Below are positions 12,437 to 53,049 of a stretch of DNA of 64,000 nucleotides, in pieces (positions within the stretch are counted from its first letter, which is position 1; each line of letters begins with the position of its first letter). Source of the stretch: Leclercia sp. S52 (lineage in GTDB: Bacteria > Pseudomonadota > Gammaproteobacteria > Enterobacterales > Enterobacteriaceae). Position numbers and translations under genes: made by a program. The notes under the pieces were generated by a model, which saw only the letters and a list, made by a program, of their open reading frames with translations, was not told the DNA's origin and ran no database searches. Location: the NCBI RefSeq assembly GCF_039727615.1, contig NZ_CP152474.1:372001-436000 (forward strand), read 5' to 3'.

Positions 12437-13300
12437 TTATGCATTAACGGCTGGCTGCATTTCAAGACAGAATGCGTGCAGGGCACGGAGGTATTCTTCT
12501 TTTGACAGCACCCCTTCCTGAGCCGTAGCTACTGGCCGATAGAATGTCTGGCAAACGCGGAACTTCTGCTGAATGGCCTGAAGCCCAGGGGTCAATGACG
12601 CGACCCGACTGATAAGGTTTTCAATTTCTGCGGTACCCGGCGTAATATTGGTCTTAAGTACAGTACCGGCCATAATTTGTTTGCCTTTATCCGTTTCGAA
12701 AACATACAGAACCAGCATATGGTTTAAGAATAAATTCTGTTTCCATACCTCATGTTCGACATGGCGATAATTCAAATATTCAAGATTCGTTAAGTCAACG
12801 AAATAAAGCATAATAAAGTCGAGTAGGGAACCTATCACTTGCATCGTCTCTTTATCACCACTGGTATTAAGTGCCTGGTTCAGTGCCAGCAAAAGAAACT
12901 CTACTTGTGTATCTTCAATATGAAGAGTCACGACGCTATTGTTTTGTAACATAACAATTAGCGTAAAATGTTCGTCACTGAATTTTGGCGCTAACGATGC
13001 GATTTGATCCTGTAAGTCAGGTTGTTCTAATTCTTCTAATTTTATTTCTGGTGTGTTTTGCAGCATTAGTTCGCTGTCAGCCTGAATTTGTGACTTATAA
13101 ATATCACCTTTATCTTGTAAACGCTGTACCGTAATCATCATACGGTGTCGAAGGATAGAAAGTAAATCCACAAGCGTATTTACAGATAAATATAAATTCT
13201 GAATTTCATTAGAGTCAGATTTAACCTTTAACATCATTAACGCCAGACGATTATTATACTTAATCGATGCTGTATTCAATCCTTGTACTTTAATGGTCAT
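12437..13300 (-). CDS. yjeJ: YjeJ family protein, last gene of the microcin export operon
   Basis: A 287-residue protein that resembles E. coli YjeJ and sits in the same slot between yjeI and epmB. It has no signal peptide or membrane segment; it looks like a soluble, leucine-rich, mixed alpha/beta protein (SVNTLVDLLSILRHRM, DEHFTLIVMLQNNSVVTLHI). It starts at ATG 13300 with AAAAGGAA upstream, only 25 bases after the exporter stop and on the same strand, so it is almost surely co-transcribed with the secretion genes. That suggests a role in peptide maturation, export control or self-protection; none is proved. In E. coli K-12 it is an uncharacterised orphan. Confidence 0.75.
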   Translation of the reverse strand: MTIKVQGLNTASIKYNNRLALMMLKVKSDSNEIQNLYLSVNTLVDLLSILRHRMMITVQRLQDKGDIYKSQIQADSELMLQNTPEIKLEELEQPDLQDQIASLAPKFSDEHFTLIVMLQNNSVVTLHIEDTQVEFLLLALNQALNTSGDKETMQVIGSLLDFIMLYFVDLTNLEYLNYRHVEHEVWKQNLFLNHMLVLYVFETDKGKQIMAGTVLKTNITPGTAEIENLISRVASLTPGLQAIQQKFRVCQTFYRPVATAQEGVLSKEEYLRALHAFCLEMQPAVNA

Positions 13301-13325: not shown

Positions 13326-15455
13326 TTACGCTGCAGGAGCGTGCTTAGACAGATCGATAATACGGTCTGCGGAAGCGATAGTAGATGGCCGGTGTGCAAT
13401 AATGATACGCGTTATGCTCAAACCAGATATAGCCTTGTTAATGCTGGCTTCGTTATTAAGATCCAGATGACTTGTTGCTTCATCCATAAACAAAATGCTT
13501 GGCTTACGGTAGAGCGCACGGGCAATAAGCACACGCTGTTTTTGTCCGCCGGAAATCCCTAACCCAAGCTCTCCTATAAGCGTTTCATAACCCATCGGCA
13601 TATTCATAATTTCATCATGAATATTACTTCTACGTGCGCACTCTTCGATGAATGACTGATCCGGATTATCGTCGAAACCGCTGATATTTTCAGATATAGA
13701 ACCTGAGAACAGTCGATCTTCCTGAAGCACGCAGGCCGTACAAAGGCGGAAGTTATTCAGGCCAATTTTATCTATCTGTAGGTTATTTGCCAGAACATCA
13801 CCATGCGTAGGCGCTAGCAGGCCACTCATCACCTTAAGCAATGTCGTTTTACCAATACCTGACGGACCTACGAGCGCGACTGATTCGCCTGGGGCCACTG
13901 TAATATTCAAATTTGAAAATATGGGCTGAGCGAAAGGATCATACTGATAAGTTAAATTTTTAACTTCAAGCTTAACGCCATGATTTTCTTCAAATACCCG
14001 ACGTAAAGGCATCTCCTTTTCAGGTTCATTAAAAGCGATTTCTGAGAGACGTTCGTTATGCAAAGATAACATACGCAGCTGCATGAAGAGATCTATCAAG
14101 CCGCTAGCCCGTTGCGAAAACTGCCCACGATAGGCATTAAAGGCCATGAACATACCGAGTGTCATTTTGTTATCAATGACCATCAAAGCACCCAGCCCCA
14201 GTATGACCACCTGATCAATGGACGAAATGAAGGTATTGATGCCGCTGAATAACATATCGAAACGCGTTTGCTTTATACCTGCATTACAGGCATCAATATT
14301 TATGTTGAGCCAGTGCTGGGAACGACGCTCTCTCAGGTTTAATGCTTTAATCGTTGCGATACCGTAAAGCGACTCCATAAAATGTGAATTGGAACGGGCG
14401 CCTTTGACCACCTGTTCTTCTGAGACACGACGGTAAAAACGGTAGGTTGCCAGGCGCATAACGGCATAACAGGTTGTAAAACCGACAACCACCCACACTA
14501 ACCAGCCACCATAAAGCGTCAGCATGATGAGAAGGCCAATGGTCATAATGGTGTCGATAACACCGCTAACGATACTGTTCGTGAAAGTAGAACGAATAGT
14601 ATCTAACGATGAAAAGCGAGACTGTATATCGCCCAGTTGCCGTTTTTCGAAAAACGACAGTGGCAAGCTGACCAGGTGATCAAACAGGGAGGTTTTCCAT
14701 TGGATATTAGTAAGTGTGTTTAATGTGAGTGAAGTCCACGCTCGTAACATACTAATAAAGGCGCGAAAAAGCGTGAATGAAACCAATCCGATACAGATTA
14801 CGGCTAAAAGATTTTGGTCGTGCGCAATGATTACGTGGTCCGTCACTAATTGCGTACCGACGGGAATCAACAGGCCGATAGCCTCGATTACAACAGATAA
14901 AGCAAATATTTTTACTAGCGCAGCTTTTAAACCAACGATATTACGCATCAAATCAAGTAAGCGAAGTCTTGATTTGACCTTTTCTTGCTTGAAATTGTGA
15001 TCGGGCCAGAGTTCTAAGGCAATACCCGTAAAATGATTAGACATTTCCTGCATGCTAATAATGCGCTTACCAAGCGCAGGATCATGCACGACAAAACTGG
15101 ACTTACGAACTTTGGTTAATACAACGTAATGGTTCATTCCCCAATGAATGATACAGGGCAATTTGAGTTGATTAATTTCATCAAGATCTAAGGACAGTGC
15201 CCGGTTTTTCAGTCCCGCATATTCAGCTGTTTTGCTCAACGACAAAAGTGTCACGCCGTGGGAAGGGCTGCCATATTTATTACGGAAGTTAAATAAATCA
15301 ATGCTATAACCATAATAACCAGAGATCATCGCCAGGCAGGCGATGCCACATTCTGCCGCCTCTGATTGAATGATTACCGGCGTTTTTCTTCTCAACGAAA
15401 AATTGAGTTTAGAAACAATACTTTTGAATAAAGTCTTATCCATGAATTGGTCCAC
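13326..15455 (-). CDS. C39 peptidase-containing ABC exporter (CvaB-like)
   Basis: A 709-residue inner-membrane protein that removes double-glycine leaders and exports the peptide. Residues about 25-150 are a C39 peptidase with the catalytic cysteine in QSEAAECGIACLAM (C36), the histidine in GMNHYVVL and the aspartate in HDPALG, so it should be active. A membrane domain of about six segments follows (about 170-440), then the ATPase with Walker A GPSGIGKTT, signature ISGGQKQR and Walker B ILFMDEATSHLD. Its start overlaps the adaptor gene by 20 bases. It is the only such exporter visible in the window, so it presumably serves both precursor genes (16922-17284 and 51089-51379). Confidence 0.93.
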   Translation of the reverse strand: MDQFMDKTLFKSIVSKLNFSLRRKTPVIIQSEAAECGIACLAMISGYYGYSIDLFNFRNKYGSPSHGVTLLSLSKTAEYAGLKNRALSLDLDEINQLKLPCIIHWGMNHYVVLTKVRKSSFVVHDPALGKRIISMQEMSNHFTGIALELWPDHNFKQEKVKSRLRLLDLMRNIVGLKAALVKIFALSVVIEAIGLLIPVGTQLVTDHVIIAHDQNLLAVICIGLVSFTLFRAFISMLRAWTSLTLNTLTNIQWKTSLFDHLVSLPLSFFEKRQLGDIQSRFSSLDTIRSTFTNSIVSGVIDTIMTIGLLIMLTLYGGWLVWVVVGFTTCYAVMRLATYRFYRRVSEEQVVKGARSNSHFMESLYGIATIKALNLRERRSQHWLNINIDACNAGIKQTRFDMLFSGINTFISSIDQVVILGLGALMVIDNKMTLGMFMAFNAYRGQFSQRASGLIDLFMQLRMLSLHNERLSEIAFNEPEKEMPLRRVFEENHGVKLEVKNLTYQYDPFAQPIFSNLNITVAPGESVALVGPSGIGKTTLLKVMSGLLAPTHGDVLANNLQIDKIGLNNFRLCTACVLQEDRLFSGSISENISGFDDNPDQSFIEECARRSNIHDEIMNMPMGYETLIGELGLGISGGQKQRVLIARALYRKPSILFMDEATSHLDLNNEASINKAISGLSITRIIIAHRPSTIASADRIIDLSKHAPAA

Positions 15456-16722
15456 TCACGCTTTGTGAAATTTTAATCAGTGGGGTAAACATCCACATAT
15501 AGAGAGGTCTTTCCTCAAGAAAAACTATTGCCTGGGCTTTAAGCCCATTTGTTAGCGTGAGTTCTTTTCCATTGTATTTAAATGCCGTATCTTTAATTTT
15601 AACAATGCACTTATAAAGTGCTAATTCCTGCTGATTCATACCAGATGAAACATTCGTATATTCACCCATTTCTTGCCGGGATGCGGGTACTGATGAAATT
15701 GATACGATTTCGCCCGGGAACTGCCCGAATTTATCGGAAGGAAACGCATCATAACGTATGTTCATTATGTCACCCGGCTTGACATACGGAAGGCTGTTGT
15801 TTGGCAGCCAAACAACTAAAAAATATTCAACGTTTTCGATTGGCTTGATTTGAACGAGGCTGCTGCCCTTGTCCACCATCTGGCCAACAGTGACGGTCAG
15901 TGATTCAATTCTTCCGTCTGTAGTTGCTTTGATGACTAAATGGCCGTTAGCGTTAGACTCAACCTTCTGATTTTTGTAATCATTAATCGTGTTTTTTTGG
16001 CTTGAGATTTGATTGTCAAAATCGGCTCCCTTGACGACCAGATCGCTTTTCAACTGGGTAAGCTGTGTTTCGAGTTGCATTCTTTGGCTGACAAGCGACT
16101 GATAAGTACTCTGCTGCTGAAAATAAAGGGAATGCTGATAATTATATTGGTCTTTAGTTATAAGACCTTTCTTGAGATACGTATCGTAGCTGGAAAGGTT
16201 TTCGCGCATTTTTTGCAGCCCTTTGCCAGTGTCCAATAACATTGTTTTAGTCTCTTTAAGAGAATCTTCATATTGCTTTTGTTGCTTAGCTAATGCTTCA
16301 AGCGTCTCTTCTTTATTTTTCAGCGTCTTACTGACTATTTCATCTGCGTTGGCAATTTTTTCATTGATGACCTGAGACATTGCCTCGTTGACATTTTCAT
16401 AAAGCGTAGAGCGTGAAACATCCAGTTCGTAGAGTGGCGTTCCTTTTTTTACAATTTCGCCATTTTCCACAAATTTATTAGTGATGAAGCCTTGTTGAGG
16501 TGCAAAAACATTAATAGAATGCGGCAGGGTAATGACCTCGCCTCTGACATCTATACGTTGAGTATATTTGCACTTGGTTAAAGTCAATATTAGTATGAAT
16601 AAAAATAAAAATGAAAATGCAACAATATATCTGGTTGGCATGCCAGCTAAAAGCAAAGCCTTCCCTTTCCAGTAATTCTTTTTATATTCAATCGCTTCCT
16701 TTCGATATAATTTATTTGTCAT
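15436..16722 (-). CDS. HlyD/CvaA-family membrane-fusion adaptor
   Basis: A 428-residue periplasmic adaptor linking the ABC exporter to an outer-membrane channel, probably TolC encoded elsewhere. A short cytoplasmic N-terminus and one membrane helix (YIVAFSFLFLFILILTL, about 31-48) are followed by a biotinyl-lipoyl half (PQQGFITNKFVENGEIVKKG), a long coiled coil (about 110-240), the second lipoyl half and a beta-barrel region. It is the length and layout of CvaA of colicin V. The upstream 200 bases hold a terminator-like hairpin that should lower its expression relative to the precursor. Confidence 0.92.
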   Translation of the reverse strand: MTNKLYRKEAIEYKKNYWKGKALLLAGMPTRYIVAFSFLFLFILILTLTKCKYTQRIDVRGEVITLPHSINVFAPQQGFITNKFVENGEIVKKGTPLYELDVSRSTLYENVNEAMSQVINEKIANADEIVSKTLKNKEETLEALAKQQKQYEDSLKETKTMLLDTGKGLQKMRENLSSYDTYLKKGLITKDQYNYQHSLYFQQQSTYQSLVSQRMQLETQLTQLKSDLVVKGADFDNQISSQKNTINDYKNQKVESNANGHLVIKATTDGRIESLTVTVGQMVDKGSSLVQIKPIENVEYFLVVWLPNNSLPYVKPGDIMNIRYDAFPSDKFGQFPGEIVSISSVPASRQEMGEYTNVSSGMNQQELALYKCIVKIKDTAFKYNGKELTLTNGLKAQAIVFLEERPLYMWMFTPLIKISQSVSGPIHG

Positions 16723-16921: not shown

Positions 16922-17284
16922 TTAATAAGGTTTAAAGCCGCCCGCAGTACCATCGAGGATACCGTCGATCAGACGAGTGATCTGGCCGTTGATATAGTCA
17001 GCGCCGTTATAAACGCCCATGATGCCGCCAAACAGAGCACCCTGGATACCGCCCCACAACGCACCTACACCGATTGCGATGTTAGCGAAACCGAGAAGGT
17101 CGCCGGAGCTGCCTGAAGCCAGACCGCCCTGCAGCGCACCACCGGAAGCGTACCCGATCAAACCGATGGCACAACCAACAACACTGTCAACGATACCAGC
17201 AAACAGGCCCTGAGAACCATCCAGAATCTGGCGTACACCTGCACCGGAAACATTGTTCATTTCTACGACTGTTAATTCTTTCAT
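16922..17284 (-). CDS. class II microcin-type secreted peptide precursor, glycine-rich
   Basis: A 120-residue precursor. The first 15 residues (MKELTVVEMNNVSGA) have the length and pattern of double-glycine-type leaders such as that of colicin V: hydrophobic residues at set spacings and V-S-G-A before the cut. Cleavage after GA would give a 105-residue product beginning GVRQIL. The product is hydrophobic and very rich in glycine and alanine (GLIGYASGGALQGGLASGSSG, GALWGGIQGALFGGIMG), like the glycine-zipper membrane-active microcins, with one cysteine. It is preceded by AAAGGATT. Export genes follow on the same strand. No classical small immunity gene is beside it. Antibacterial activity is inferred, not shown. 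Confidence 0.85.
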   Translation of the reverse strand: MKELTVVEMNNVSGAGVRQILDGSQGLFAGIVDSVVGCAIGLIGYASGGALQGGLASGSSGDLLGFANIAIGVGALWGGIQGALFGGIMGVYNGADYINGQITRLIDGILDGTAGGFKPY

Positions 17285-17712: not shown

Positions 17713-18744
17713 CTATCTTTCTTGCAGTACGATTTCGAACATGGCCCTAACCTGACCAACCGTTACCGTTTCTCCAGTACGAATATAATCGGCATTGAAC
17801 GTCAACTGCTGAGTTGCCTTCGCACTTAAAATTGAGTAACTCGTATAATCATAGAATTTAATCGGTGACATATCCTGTTTAAGGATGAAGCCTGTCCCCC
17901 CAGCACCACCAGCGGTCGTAGGTATGGAGTTGAGTAATACGCCATTTTTTGAAGATGAGTTTTCAGTCAATGGGTTAAACCAATAGATAAATGAATTCCC
18001 TACAGATGTTTTAGGACAATCGACCTGCATCGTGAATGATTTTTGATTACCCGTTGCTGTACCAGAAAGAGTAGCCACAAGCTTCGATACTTTGATTTTG
18101 TCCAGCGTAATGGTGCTACCACCCACGGCTTTTATATCGCATGATGTCTGTCTAAAAGTAAAGGGACCAAAAGTCAGGTTCGCCCTTAACAGCCTTGCGG
18201 TTGTAGAGTTACTTTCCACCTGTGACACTGAACCTGCTCTGTACGAAACTGCCAGCGTTTTTGCAGTCGTAACACTGGTATCAATATCTTCATTAGTTTT
18301 GATTAACCATACGATAAGCTGCTGTACAGCCGAAGACGTTGAATTGAGCTTCCAGGCATTTACTGTGCCAAATTCCACTGGGCTAGGGCGGAAGTTTGTT
18401 CCTTTGATAGCATCTGAAATTTGAAAACCAATACCTGGAATCCCCGTTTCATAGACTTTACCGCCCTGAATACCTTTAACGCCAACAGCTTCTGCCGTTG
18501 GTGTCATTGGAAGCACAGCATAAACATCGCTTGGGCCACAATTATAAAAAGTTTTCATATTTGCGACGTTACCGCCGATTTTTTTGGCGGCTAAAACGGT
18601 ACCAGTGGGTATAGTCGCATCTGATAAAATTTTCATGCCACTCAAGTTAAAGCCCACCGACTGCTCTGAGCCTTTATATTCGCATGTGGCGCTGGCTTGA
18701 TGATAAAAACACATTAAGCCAATAAGAGTAATGATTTTTCTCAT
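17713..18744 (-). CDS. fimbrial tip adhesin
   Basis: A 343-residue exported protein in two parts. A signal peptide (about 1-20, ending HQASA) precedes an N-terminal putative receptor-binding domain (about 21-190). A C-terminal pilin domain (about 205-343) carries a cysteine pair (TSCDIKAVG and MQVDCPKTS) and a beta-strand end (VRAMFEIVLQER) of the kind that binds the chaperone and usher. It is the last gene of the operon, where tip adhesins usually sit. I chose the ATG at 18744 because AAGGAAAT precedes it; the longer frame would overlap the usher. The receptor is unknown. Confidence 0.8.
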   Translation of the reverse strand: MRKIITLIGLMCFYHQASATCEYKGSEQSVGFNLSGMKILSDATIPTGTVLAAKKIGGNVANMKTFYNCGPSDVYAVLPMTPTAEAVGVKGIQGGKVYETGIPGIGFQISDAIKGTNFRPSPVEFGTVNAWKLNSTSSAVQQLIVWLIKTNEDIDTSVTTAKTLAVSYRAGSVSQVESNSTTARLLRANLTFGPFTFRQTSCDIKAVGGSTITLDKIKVSKLVATLSGTATGNQKSFTMQVDCPKTSVGNSFIYWFNPLTENSSSKNGVLLNSIPTTAGGAGGTGFILKQDMSPIKFYDYTSYSILSAKATQQLTFNADYIRTGETVTVGQVRAMFEIVLQER

Positions 18745-18761
18745 GATCTTATATTTCCTTA

Positions 18762-21302
18762 TTATCGGCAAACGACGGTTGATTGCGCAATATTCCCTGG
18801 TACCATCGACAGACTATATGTCGCTGAGCACTGCTGCTCAGGTTTGCTTCCCCATTGAGCATATACCTGACCGTTATCTTTCAGGCCAGACATATAAACC
18901 ATGCCGCCGTCAGAGACGATACTCGCCTGGGAGTCTTTCCTGGTGTCTGTTGTTACCGTTGAACCATAAGGAACAAATCCACCTGTAGGCAGTTTTAAGA
19001 TAAGGAATGCACGATGTCCTATATTACCTTCGAAGTTAGCCCGTGTGATTGCGCCACGTGTCGGAACGATCTTCTTAGTGGTTTTTGGCAGTTCCATATT
19101 TTCAGCCAGCGTCGTGCTATCCAATGAAACACTGGTACGACGATAAGGATTCAGGTAAGGAACAATAGCGTAACCACGATAATCGGTTTCAATACTTGGA
19201 TCATTTTCCAGACGAACATGACTCAGCCCTGGAGCCTTAACTAATGCAGCTGTGTCTGACATTTCTTGCCCAAGCGTAATACCATCAGCATGAACAAGAA
19301 CCCCACCACTGGCACCATAGTTGATCAACTGGCTCTCTTTATTGTAGCTATAGCCAGCATTAACGGAGCCTAAAGAACCTTTATAAGTGCTGGAAACTCC
19401 GCCGCTTGCGCTTTCGCGATTGCTATAACCCTGCTGCACGTTCCAGTCGAGATTATTATTCTCCAGTGCAACGCCACCCAATGATACGTACTGTTCAGTC
19501 GAGCCTGGGTTACTGTTGTTCAGAGCATAAGTAGCATAGGTGTTCGGAATCCAATCACCCAGTGGAACAGAAACTGACAATGAGAACAGATGGTCATCTT
19601 CTTTAACACGATCGGACCGGCTGTTTTCCCATGAATAACGGTTGTAACTATAACCTAAGTAATAGTTAAGGCGTTTCCAACCGCCATTATAGCCAACGCT
19701 AAGCGAACTGTTACGTCTCTTATTATTCCAGTAATCTTCAAAGACGCCTGAAATTGAAATACTTCCCAACCCTTCACCGAGGCTTTGGTTTACAGTGAGG
19801 TTTGTTCTGTTACGCACCGACCTTGTCGACGAGTTGGAAATATTATTATTATAGGAATCGAACACTTCTGCTAAAGTATTAAATCCTTCAGTCGAATAGC
19901 GATAACCTGCTACTGTAATATTCGTGCCGGTTTCAAGAATATTTTTACCGTAGCGAATACGCCAGGATTGACCTGACGTTTTAGCAGCATTTTTTAATTG
20001 GGACCATGCCTGGGTAATGTCCGCCGAAATCGCCCCGAACTCTGCCAGGTTATGACCTATACCAAGCGCGATTGATTTATACTTCGAAGCAGCCTGTAGG
20101 CCACTATAAAATGTTGTGTTAGTGAGGGCACCATAAGTGATTGTCGCCTGGGTAAAGGGCGTTTCATCGGTGGCTTTATCATAAGGGCGGTACTTCCCGC
20201 TCGTGATTTCATATTGCATTTGCCCTTCACGAAGCATCAATGGCAGAGAAGCAAAAGGCACGATAAATCTTTGCTGAGTACCATCTGACTCTTCTACAGT
20301 AACATATAAGTCACCATTACCGCCGGTAGCGTACATGTCGCTGATTTCAAATGCGCCTGGTGCCACGAAAGCCTGGTACACTTGATAACCATTTTGCTTA
20401 ACCACAACGCGGGCGTTTGTTTTTGCGATACCGCGAATGACTGGTGCATAGCCACGCTGGCTTTCAGGAAGCATCTCATCATCGGAGGCTAATTGAATAC
20501 CGGTGAAAGGAACACCATCAAAAATCGTTGATAGGGATGAACTTTCACCAACGACTAATGAGCTTTTAAGAGGAATGATGTTCCTCTGGGCGTACAAATA
20601 AACGGAATCCCATTTCCCTTTTCCGCCCGCTTCTTTACTCCATGCGCCAAGGTTTCTGAGACGCCACGCTCCAACGTTTAAGCCGGACTGAAGGTTAAGA
20701 TTGTAGTTTTCATCTTTAGTCTTAAAGTCCTGACCGCCAGTAAACTGATAGTTCGCAAGTAAAGCGTTGATACCTTCGTCATACTCTTCAGGCGAAATAG
20801 TGCCTTGTGCGATGTTAACAAGCGCAGCTTGAGGTATGGAAATAAAGAGCTGCTGCGTATTAAAGTTAAATTCAGTTTTGAAATCAGGGATGCTGCTGGT
20901 ATTAGTGCAACCATTAGCATCCTCTTTCAGACCAGGGAAAGCGGCGATCCGCACACCATAGCTTTCTAATTTCTTAATACTCAGGCATGGAACAAGGGTT
21001 GCCCCCTCGCTGCCGCTGGCTTCTACGAAGCGTATTGTACTGGATTCCTGAAAGTCATTATTCAGTAATACTTCAACACGGTATTCTCCCGGCGCCTGGG
21101 AGTCTTTATTGGAATATGCCGATAAATCGAGCGGCGAAGTTGAGTCACTTTGACCCACTGATTTTATAAATGCAGGATCAAAAAAATCTCGAGCCAGGGC
21201 ATTATTATTACTTAAGCTGATAATCAAAGCCGGTACCAGAGCGACGTATTTAGGCGTATTTCCGGTAAATAAATAAGTTTTTTTCTTATTTTGCAGAGAC
21301 AT
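18762..21302 (-). CDS. fimbrial outer-membrane usher
   Basis: An 846-residue outer-membrane pore that assembles chaperone-bound pilins. It has a signal peptide, an N-terminal chaperone-binding domain opening FFDPAFIKSVGQ, a 24-strand barrel with plug (PVIRGIAKTNARVVVKQNGYQ), and C-terminal domains with TRGAITRANFEGNIGHRAFL and a closing cysteine pair (EQQCSATYSLS, TVVCR). It starts at the ATG 21302 behind AGGGTG. It is complete and intact, so the fimbria is likely functional. Confidence 0.95.
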   Translation of the reverse strand: MSLQNKKKTYLFTGNTPKYVALVPALIISLSNNNALARDFFDPAFIKSVGQSDSTSPLDLSAYSNKDSQAPGEYRVEVLLNNDFQESSTIRFVEASGSEGATLVPCLSIKKLESYGVRIAAFPGLKEDANGCTNTSSIPDFKTEFNFNTQQLFISIPQAALVNIAQGTISPEEYDEGINALLANYQFTGGQDFKTKDENYNLNLQSGLNVGAWRLRNLGAWSKEAGGKGKWDSVYLYAQRNIIPLKSSLVVGESSSLSTIFDGVPFTGIQLASDDEMLPESQRGYAPVIRGIAKTNARVVVKQNGYQVYQAFVAPGAFEISDMYATGGNGDLYVTVEESDGTQQRFIVPFASLPLMLREGQMQYEITSGKYRPYDKATDETPFTQATITYGALTNTTFYSGLQAASKYKSIALGIGHNLAEFGAISADITQAWSQLKNAAKTSGQSWRIRYGKNILETGTNITVAGYRYSTEGFNTLAEVFDSYNNNISNSSTRSVRNRTNLTVNQSLGEGLGSISISGVFEDYWNNKRRNSSLSVGYNGGWKRLNYYLGYSYNRYSWENSRSDRVKEDDHLFSLSVSVPLGDWIPNTYATYALNNSNPGSTEQYVSLGGVALENNNLDWNVQQGYSNRESASGGVSSTYKGSLGSVNAGYSYNKESQLINYGASGGVLVHADGITLGQEMSDTAALVKAPGLSHVRLENDPSIETDYRGYAIVPYLNPYRRTSVSLDSTTLAENMELPKTTKKIVPTRGAITRANFEGNIGHRAFLILKLPTGGFVPYGSTVTTDTRKDSQASIVSDGGMVYMSGLKDNGQVYAQWGSKPEQQCSATYSLSMVPGNIAQSTVVCR

Positions 21303-21335
21303 GTGTTCACCCTGAACATTCAATAAAAAAATAAA

Positions 21336-50032: not shown

Positions 50033-51034
50033 ATGCGTAAGTCAGTTATTGCGATCATCATCATCGTGCTGGTCGTGCTTTATACCTCTATCTTTGTCGT
50101 CAAAGAGGGTGAGCGCGGAATTACCCTGCGTTTCGGCAAAGTCCTGCGTGACAGCGAAAACAAGCCGCTGGTTTACGAGCCGGGTCTGCACTTTAAGATC
50201 CCGATGATCGAATCGGTTAAAACCCTGGATGCGCGTATCCAGACCATGGATAACCAGGCCGATCGCTTCGTAACCAAAGAGAAGAAAGACCTGATTGTCG
50301 ACTCGTACATCAAGTGGCGCATCAGCGATTTCAGCCGTTACTACCTGGCGACCGGCGGCGGTGACGTCTCCCAGGCCGAAGTGCTGCTGAAACGTAAGTT
50401 CTCTGACCGCCTGCGTTCTGAAATTGGTCGTCTGGATGTGAAAGACATCGTTACCGATTCCCGTGGTCGTCTGACCCTGGAAGTGCGCGATGCCCTGAAC
50501 TCCGGCTCTGCAGGCACGGAAGATGAAGTGACCACCCCAGCGGCGGACGATGCGATCGCCAAAGCAGCTGAGCGTGTTCAGGCTGAAACCAACGGTAAAG
50601 TGCCGGTGATCAACCCGAACAGTATGGCAGCGTTAGGTATCGAAGTGGTGGATGTGCGTATCAAGCAGATCAACCTGCCGACCGAAGTGTCCGAAGCGAT
50701 TTACAACCGTATGCGCGCTGAGCGTGAAGCGGTAGCCCGTCGCCATCGTTCACAGGGTCAGGAAGAGGCTGAAAAGCTGCGTGCAACCGCAGACTATGAA
50801 GTGACGAAAACGCTGGCAGAAGCGGAGCGTCAGGGTCGTATCCAGCGTGGTGAAGGTGATGCCGAAGCGGCGAAACTGTTTGCTGATGCGTTCAGCCAGG
50901 ACCCGGACTTCTATGCCTTTATCCGTAGCCTGCGTGCTTACGAAAGCAGCTTCCAGAGCAATCAGGACGTAATGGTTCTGAGCCCGGATAGCGATTTCTT
51001 CCGCTATATGAAATCACCGACGACCAGCCGCTGA
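50033..51034 (+). CDS. hflC: FtsH regulator HflC
   Basis: A 333-residue partner of HflK with an N-terminal signal anchor (VIAIIIIVLVVLYTSIFVV), a band-7 domain and a coiled coil rich in alanine and glutamate. It starts at the ATG 50033 (MRKSVIAIIII). In the sequence as given it is fused in frame to hflK because of one surplus G just upstream; this is not expected to be real. Confidence 0.96.
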   Translation: MRKSVIAIIIIVLVVLYTSIFVVKEGERGITLRFGKVLRDSENKPLVYEPGLHFKIPMIESVKTLDARIQTMDNQADRFVTKEKKDLIVDSYIKWRISDFSRYYLATGGGDVSQAEVLLKRKFSDRLRSEIGRLDVKDIVTDSRGRLTLEVRDALNSGSAGTEDEVTTPAADDAIAKAAERVQAETNGKVPVINPNSMAALGIEVVDVRIKQINLPTEVSEAIYNRMRAEREAVARRHRSQGQEEAEKLRATADYEVTKTLAEAERQGRIQRGEGDAEAAKLFADAFSQDPDFYAFIRSLRAYESSFQSNQDVMVLSPDSDFFRYMKSPTTSR

Positions 51035-51053
51035 TTTTAACCGCGTGAAAAAT

Positions 51054-51087
51054 AAAAGGGCGCCTCGATGAGGCGCCCTTTTTTTAC
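51054..51087. terminator. bidirectional terminator between hflC and the orphan precursor gene
   Basis: AAGGGCGCCTC-GATG-GAGGCGCCCTT-type stem with T runs on both sides serves the convergent ends of hflC (+) and the peptide gene (-). Confidence 0.85.
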
Positions 51088-51088
51088 A

Positions 51089-51379
51089 TCAGTTACCCAG
51101 CCATTTATTCAGCAGGCTGCCAACAACCGGCAGACCCGCCAGGGCTGATTCAATCGTCCCACCCACGGTTGAACCAATTGTTTTGCCCACGGTTTCGCCC
51201 AGATCCGGGGCGATAGTGGTCAGATTAATGGTACCAATCAGTGGAACGTCGATATTCAGCAGGCTGCTGCTTTTTGACCATGCTGCCGCGCCGATTTTGC
51301 TGCCCAGAGACGCCAGGTTATCCTGCAACCAGCCGGCACCACTCACACATTCGAGTTCAAATGCTGTTAATTCTTTCAT
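51089..51379 (-). CDS. orphan class II microcin-type secreted peptide precursor
   Basis: A 96-residue precursor with the leader MKELTAFELECVSGA, which shares MKELT, the acidic residue, and VSGAG with the precursor at 16922-17284. Cleavage after GA would give an 81-residue product beginning GWLQDN, rich in glycine, serine and small hydrophobics (TVGKTIGSTVGGTIESALAG). I chose the second ATG (51379) because AGGATGATTAAC puts the Shine-Dalgarno at normal spacing. There is no exporter, adaptor or immunity gene beside it, so it presumably uses the exporter at 13326-15455. It lies where E. coli has yjeT, which is absent. Function as a bacteriocin is inferred. Confidence 0.82.
   Translation of the reverse strand: MKELTAFELECVSGAGWLQDNLASLGSKIGAAAWSKSSSLLNIDVPLIGTINLTTIAPDLGETVGKTIGSTVGGTIESALAGLPVVGSLLNKWLGN

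Positions 51380-53049
<1,670 letters not shown>

What the first reader, a model, noticed from the sequence alone, without database searches (positions are those of the whole stretch)
51089..51379. Orphan second precursor between hflC and purA with the same leader as the microcin gene 34 kb away
Seen: MKELTAFELECVSGAG here and MKELTVVEMNNVSGAG at the export operon, both with 15 residues before the GA cut site and a glycine-rich, small-residue product. The gene fills the E. coli yjeT slot and has no exporter, adaptor or immunity gene near it. Known: C39 peptidases recognise such leaders. Inference: one exporter serves two unlinked peptides, possibly a two-peptide or multi-effector system. Such genes are easily missed because they stand alone inside core gene clusters.
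Basis: partly seen in the sequence, partly recalled or inferred. Interest (0 to 1): 0.85.

Follow-up and report, generated by a model that had tools for sequence, protein, structure and literature searches.

The report
Stand-alone precursors share one peptide exporter
A small gene wedged between two housekeeping genes very probably makes a secreted, membrane-active peptide that uses an export machine encoded far away on the same chromosome, and the same genome holds at least one more such stand-alone gene, so searches that look only beside exporters would miss them.

Summary
The ORF is real: 96 codons, minus strand, 51089-51379, between hflC and purA, with a double-glycine-type leader (MKELTAFELECVSGA|G). 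It is a conserved gene: orthologues at this slot occur in Leclercia, Silvania, Enterobacter, Entomohabitans and Klebsiella, including the K. pneumoniae type strain, under purifying selection and with a covarying 5' hairpin. Among 80 genomes of two genera, 16 of 18 carriers have the groEL-locus C39 exporter; the exceptions are a 79%-complete MAG and one genome without any C39 match, whose copy has a changed C-terminus. One draft Enterobacter genome has exporter and adaptor but no detected exporter-linked precursor, only this gene. An obligate two-peptide toxin is not supported. I saw no convincing immunity gene, so killing is unproven. The co-occurrence is strong but not independent of phylogeny. 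New variant of a known kind.

The parts
51089..51379 (-). stand-alone precursor gene (96 aa) between hflC and purA
   Evidence: orthologues; dN/dS 0.09-0.31 in 10 pairs
51335..51379 (-). double-glycine-type leader MKELTAFELECVSGA, predicted C39 cut after Ala15
   Evidence: sequence; invariant M1 L4 E8 V12 G14 A15 G16 in the 13 aligned relatives; PF17508 MccV matches residues 1-33 below cut-off, 20.4 vs 27 bits
51092..51334 (-). predicted mature peptide (81 aa, GWLQDNLASLG...), glycine zipper GETVGKTIGSTVG at residues 61-73, C-terminal NKWLGN
   Evidence: model helix 17-39, short strands 42-52, helix 60-82, mean pLDDT 69
51410..51427 (-). covarying 6-bp hairpin in the 5' leader (CGTCTC/GAGACG), 30 nt between it and the ATG
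   Evidence: 90.3% of cells paired, covariation 0.484 vs 0.219 shuffled (0/500), slid controls <=0.137
51054..51082 (-). terminator-like hairpin just after the orphan's stop
16922..17284 (-). exporter-linked precursor (120 aa), leader MKELTVVEMNNVSGA
15436..16722 (-). HlyD-type membrane fusion protein of the exporter
13326..15455 (-). C39 peptidase-containing ABC exporter (709 aa), Cys/His/Asp motifs intact
12437..13300 (-). yjeJ, directly downstream of the exporter here; matched beside the exporter in 21 of 23 exporter loci read

Best explanation
The gene encodes the precursor of a secreted, glycine-zipper, bacteriocin-like peptide. Its 15-residue leader is recognised and cut after Gly-Ala by the C39 domain of the groEL-locus ABC exporter, 36 kb away, which with HlyD and host TolC sends the 81-residue product out of the cell. 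The exporter is a hub for a dispersed set of precursors: variable ones beside it, this conserved one at hflC-purA, and another at cyoE. SHOWN: ORF, conservation and purifying selection, leader, hairpin, co-occurrence, second stand-alone family. INFERRED: cleavage site, export route, TolC use, and membrane action by oligomerising helices, either as a killing peptide of class II microcin/Cdz type or as a surface-active accessory peptide.
For: Orthologues in 10 of 60 window-genus and 8 of 20 Klebsiella-genus genomes (flanks). Exporter of >=78% identity in 16 of these 18 versus 5 of 62 non-carriers, Fisher p 1e-10, not corrected for phylogeny. G046 (draft, 130 contigs): intact exporter, HlyD and yjeJ, no linked-type precursor in the locus or elsewhere at E<=0.5, orphan intact. 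G027: no C39 match, no exporter or HlyD match between yjeJ and epmB, and the NKxLGN end of the orphan replaced. Leaders of most linked, hflC and cyoE precursors follow M-K-E-L-[TS]-x2-E-[ML]-x2-[VI]-S-G-[GA]. A cyoE-type precursor is in the window's own genome (G000:C1:1058638-1058967) and in 19 of 21 exporter genomes versus 1 of 59 others; in the Klebsiella genus the two sets are identical, 11 of 20. The own genome has two C39-family matches; in the weaker one (L002) I see, by eye, no Q-x5-CG motif like that of the window's exporter.
Against: On a gyrB tree of 30 of the 60 window-genus genomes the exporter changes 3 times, the hflC gene 5 and the cyoE type 4; the independent-pair test, run for hflC versus exporter only, has too few pairs (median p 0.5), so shared ancestry may explain much of the association. 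The exporter and the hflC slot lie 36 kb apart and could move together; the cyoE locus is not open to that objection. G027 keeps hflC, cyoE-type and two mpl-side precursors with no C39 match. No convincing immunity candidate at either stand-alone locus. No shared upstream element with the linked precursor (nhmmer). Pfam MccV is below cut-off, and 2 of 13 aligned relatives reach E 0.01.
Confidence: 0.72

Rival explanations
1. Same export route, but the product is not a killing toxin: it is a surface, aggregation, biofilm or signalling peptide, which is why it needs no immunity gene and is so conserved.
For: No convincing immunity candidate at the hflC or cyoE loci; hflC orthologues 60-79% identical over their length (41% in G061), against 27-73% for linked precursors. 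The review PMC10233263 (passages) notes that roles in communication or biofilm formation have been found.
Against: Glycine-zipper composition and leader resemble class II microcins and Cdz proteins; [quoted passage not shown]
Confidence: 0.35
2. Obligate two-peptide bacteriocin made of the orphan and an exporter-linked peptide.
For: Similar leader and composition; Cdz needs two proteins (PMC5380434 passages).
Against: G046 has the orphan and no detected linked partner; G031, G036, G346 and G500 have linked precursors but no orphan.
Confidence: 0.12
3. Association by shared ancestry only; the peptide stays in the cell or leaves by another route.
For: Few independent changes on the gyrB tree; G027 keeps precursors without any C39 match.
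Against: Two unlinked precursor loci track the exporter; altered C-terminus in G027; the leader is of the kind C39 exporters cut.
Confidence: 0.13
4. Relic of a former microcin cluster, no longer functional.
For: Stands alone without exporter or immunity gene.
Against: dN/dS 0.09-0.31, covarying 5' hairpin, conserved slot across genera.
Confidence: 0.04

Closest known systems
Class II microcins (microcin V type) with PCAT/MFP/TolC export
   Same: Double-glycine-type leader, small glycine-containing product of about 80 aa, C39 ABC exporter plus HlyD adaptor in the genome
   Different: Precursor far from the exporter in a core-gene slot, no convincing immunity gene nearby, conserved across genera; PF17508 score below its cut-off. 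[quoted passage not shown] Cdz-like systems noted in K. pneumoniae, PMC5380434 passages)
   Same: Small glycine-zipper proteins exported by a type I secretion system; exporter-linked precursors here are rich in GxxxG
   Different: That search looked at small proteins within ~10 kb of the exporter; this gene is 36 kb away, the cyoE one 671 kb; zipper spacer residues are polar as well as hydrophobic; no CdzI-like gene recognised
Shared export of several microcins in one cluster (PMC10233263 passage; microcins M and H47 as the example are recalled)
   Same: One PCAT/MFP serves more than one precursor
   Different: There the precursors share a cluster; here they are dispersed over the chromosome
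Prochlorosin-type dispersed precursors with one processing/export route (recalled; no call tested it)
   Same: Many precursors, some unlinked to the enzyme
   Different: Lanthipeptides of cyanobacteria; no modification enzyme noticed here

Membership tests
Class II microcin | N-terminal leader ending in GG or GA | tested here: met
Class II microcin | C39 ABC exporter and membrane fusion protein in the genome | tested here: met
Class II microcin | precursor encoded close to exporter | tested here: not met
   36 kb apart
Class II microcin | cognate immunity gene nearby | tested here: not met
   ORFs of 30 aa or more between hflC and purA: only one hydrophobic one, antisense to the orphan itself; an unusual immunity gene elsewhere is not excluded
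Class II microcin | Pfam MccV (PF17508) above gathering score | tested here: not met
   20.4 bits vs 27
Class II microcin | antibacterial activity | not testable with these tools
   needs an assay
Cdz | extended GxxxGxxxG zipper of small hydrophobic residues | tested here: inconclusive
   GETVGKTIGSTVG: zipper present, spacers partly polar
Cdz | toxin genes next to CdzAB-like exporter with an immunity gene | tested here: not met
   orphan has no neighbouring exporter, partner or recognised immunity gene
Cdz | cell-surface aggregates and contact-dependent killing | not testable with these tools
   needs an assay

The most novel reading that the evidence does not exclude
Klebsiella, Leclercia and relatives carry a dispersed secretion regulon: one C39 exporter at groEL serves constant stand-alone peptides in core-gene slots (hflC-purA, cyoE, in some genomes mpl) together with variable peptides beside the exporter, acting as a combinatorial surface or contact weapon without dedicated immunity genes that cluster-based mining misses.
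Probability: 0.33. Interest if true: 0.8.

Novelty: new variant of a known kind. Interest (0 to 1): 0.6.

Why it matters
Microcin mining leans on closeness to the exporter: one paper suggests that future searches could be restricted to ORFs near PCAT/MFP genes (PMC11494933, first part of the discussion), another searched within ~10 kb (PMC5380434 passages). Here conserved precursors, annotated as hypothetical proteins in the two K. pneumoniae records read, sit tens to hundreds of kilobases away. If they are exported, an abundant opportunist secretes uncharacterised peptides by a route that one exporter deletion can test.

Tried and rejected
A shared promoter or upstream element with the exporter-linked precursor: an nhmmer model of the orphan's upstream block found itself and one sub-threshold match (E 1.5) in 15 sources. 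Rfam: no match at gathering score in window 50800-51800. G504 as a second orphan-only genome: rejected, its linked-type precursors lie about 7 kb beyond the exporter, outside the stretch I had read. E. coli, DNA searches only: flanks matched in 5375 of 5426 genomes, none covering 80% of the query, so no sign of the orphan; no exporter match covering 80%, best mchF at 63.5% over 61%. Fold search: model mean pLDDT 69, no PDB match with E<=0.001. Covariation of the cyoE 5' hairpin: weak, 84% of cells paired, but 25 of 500 shuffles reach its covariation score (17 rows chosen from 25). RNA folding z-scores of the 5' leaders are modest: mean -1.1 for 19 hflC, -2.0 for 25 cyoE-type, -1.2 for 22 linked. 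A precursor next to mpl in the window's genome: none found by a leader pattern scan of the 40 kb read there (the scan requires M, so a GTG-started leader, such as the cyoE one in the third stretch, escapes it). Paper searches for microcin with hflC (3 papers, seen as a listing only) and for unlinked or shared-exporter microcins (listings) showed no description of this gene. Supplements of PMC9746304 and PMC11494933, which list putative Klebsiella microcins, could not be opened, so the sequences may already be listed there; one UniRef name for a cyoE-type relative is 'Bacteriocin' (P0103).

Full report
OBSERVATION. The window is C1:372001-436000 of a 4.93-Mb genome. The ORF at 51089-51379 (-) encodes 96 aa. 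It is convergent with hflC (50033-51034 +) and divergent from purA (51751-53049 +). The exporter operon lies near groEL: precursor, HlyD, C39 ABC exporter, yjeJ. A leader pattern finds only the two named places in the window and none in 20 shuffles.

A CONSERVED GENE. Thirteen relatives align over almost their full length, with invariant M1 L4 E8 V12 G14 A15 G16 Q19 and G61/65/69/73, the last four a glycine zipper (one of the 13, L014 of G062, is not at this slot). In 118 relatives 12 have a match; ten of the twelve loci show hflC and purA in their flanks, L007 only purA (its contig ends), L014 neither. Named carriers: two Leclercia MAGs, K. grimontii, K. pneumoniae ATCC 13883, K. spallanzanii, Silvania confinis, Enterobacter asburiae and Entomohabitans teleogrylli. 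One protein cluster named after K. pneumoniae lists 619 member sequences and 1000 contigs; a 49% relative is named Morganella morganii. In two K. pneumoniae records the gene is annotated 'hypothetical protein'. dN/dS in 10 of the 66 possible pairs of 12 sequences is 0.09-0.31. A DNA search of 5426 E. coli genomes found the flanks in 5375 and no match covering 80% of the query.

5' REGION. About 140 nt upstream are partly conserved. A 6-bp hairpin, 30 nt before the ATG, keeps pairing through sequence change: 90.3% of cells paired, 18 double-change cells, covariation 0.484 against 0.219 in shuffles (0 of 500), slid controls at most 0.137 (19 distinct rows). The upstream block is not shared with the exporter-linked precursor.

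CO-OCCURRENCE. Exporter of >=78% identity: 10 of 60 window-genus and 11 of 20 Klebsiella-genus genomes. hflC orphan: 10 of 60 and 8 of 20 (in one search a ninth genome, G497, matches weakly at E 2.5e-5 and is not counted). Both: 16; orphan only: G027 and G032; exporter only: G031, G036, G346, G498, G500; neither: 57. Three Klebsiella-genus genomes with 70-71% exporters (G412, G499, G505) are counted as without. G032 is 79% complete. G027 has no C39 match; between its yjeJ and epmB there is no exporter or HlyD match, and its orphan ends in LFRANVSPTA instead of NKxLGN. In G498 the hlyD gene runs into what looks like an IS5-type transposase start (recalled likeness). Fisher p is 1e-10 over 80 genomes, but on a gyrB tree of 30 genomes the traits change only 3-5 times and the independent-pair test has no power. 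In the wider family search 48 of 392 genomes match the profile at E<=0.001, many only in the leader. Some of the stronger matches lie beside an exporter match (G199, G311, G384), others far from one (G327, 46 kb; G192 has its only C39 match 2.8 Mb away). Of 20 genomes chosen for a C39 search 17 match; G027, G032 and G060 do not.

G046. This draft genome has exporter, HlyD and yjeJ, with only a regulator-like gene between epmB and HlyD. A profile of 18 linked precursors finds no match there at E<=0.5, while the 11 other genomes searched match; the cyoE-type search is also empty. The orphan is its only detected precursor.

SECOND STAND-ALONE FAMILY. The linked-precursor profile also found unlinked ORFs with the same kind of leader beside cyoE. 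A profile of five of these (two subtypes: a 110-aa form with roughly 11-residue repeats, and a 108-aa form) matches 20 of 80 genomes, the window's own included. There it is a 110-aa GTG-started ORF just after cyoE, VKELSLNEMHYISGG-FNLFGAATGFTSFV..., 671 kb from the exporter. Nineteen of the 20 genomes have a member within about 1.5 kb of cyoE (in G031, G036 and G045 this is the 108-aa form; G031 and G045 have the repeat form about 20 kb off); G498's diverged copy showed no cyoE in its flank and is flagged with a stop in the matched stretch. The family is in 19 of 21 exporter genomes and 1 of 59 others (G027); in the Klebsiella genus both sets are the same 11 of 20. Every one of the 21 exporter genomes has at least one of the two stand-alone genes. 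Because cyoE is far from groEL, linkage does not explain this, though ancestry may. G027 has a third type beside what looks like mpl (name recalled), and G035 has three similar matches.

MECHANISM. PCATs cut double-glycine leaders with their C39 domain (PMC9746304 passages). The window's exporter has QSEAAECGIAC, HWGMNHYVV and DPALG motifs. The other C39-family match in the genome (L002, E 1.3e-8) shows by eye no such Cys motif, as in type I systems with inactive C39-like domains (recalled). The simplest reading is that this exporter handles all three precursors. The predicted model (mean pLDDT 69) has a helix 17-39, a short strand pair and the zipper helix 60-82; no PDB match is significant. 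Membrane insertion or aggregation is inferred from composition and from Cdz. A scan of small hydrophobic ORFs found only frames overlapping the precursors themselves at the hflC, cyoE and groEL loci, so immunity, and with it killing, is open.

LITERATURE. Seen: passages of PMC9746304, PMC5380434, PMC8386478, PMC13174018, PMC13101503 (89, one passage), PMC10233263 and PMC11494933; section 9 of PMC9746304; the first part of the discussion of PMC11494933. PMC9746304 reports microcin hits in nearly 100% of K. pneumoniae assemblies; which genes these are is in supplements I could not open. I saw no text describing stand-alone precursors at hflC or cyoE in the listings and passages; cyoE was not itself a search term.

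Noticed in passing
G000:C1:1058638-1058967 (-), L259: Second stand-alone precursor after cyoE with ~11-residue repeats and GTG start; its family tracks the exporter.
   Followed up: yes
L230 and L236 (G027), G035:C1:459578-460864: Two leader-bearing ORFs (MRELNIMEMQVVSAAAG...) beside what looks like mpl in G027; three similar matches in G035: a possible third dispersed precursor locus.
   Followed up: partly
L276 (G027:C1:1496626) and L279 (G346:C1:3255360): A 75-aa leader-bearing ORF (MREL...VSGGFGLLS...) shared by a window-genus and a Klebsiella-genus genome.
   Followed up: no
L219:11517-11813 (G496): Extra leader-like ORF (MKELTNQEMDSVGGG...) next to yjeJ.
   Followed up: no
window 12437-13300: yjeJ lies directly downstream of the exporter, in 21 of 23 exporter loci read, and survives without it in G027; its role is unknown.
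   Followed up: partly
window about 51465-51480 (-): Palindrome TGAATTAAAATTCA upstream of the orphan, like an ARG box (recalled consensus); conserved in part among orthologues.
   Followed up: no
L083:6150-6675 (G062): Two tandem leader-bearing ORFs with no exporter-like entry among the ORFs over 250 aa listed in that 13-kb stretch.
   Followed up: no
NZ_CP129856.1 and CP125156.1 (PLSDB): K. pneumoniae 'plasmid' records that hold chromosomal core genes (groEL, hfq, mutL); probably chromosome or chromosome pieces.
   Followed up: no
window 17713-21323: Fimbrial-type genes (adhesin-like and usher-like) flank the precursor; the same pair recurs near the exporter in many of the loci read.
   Followed up: no
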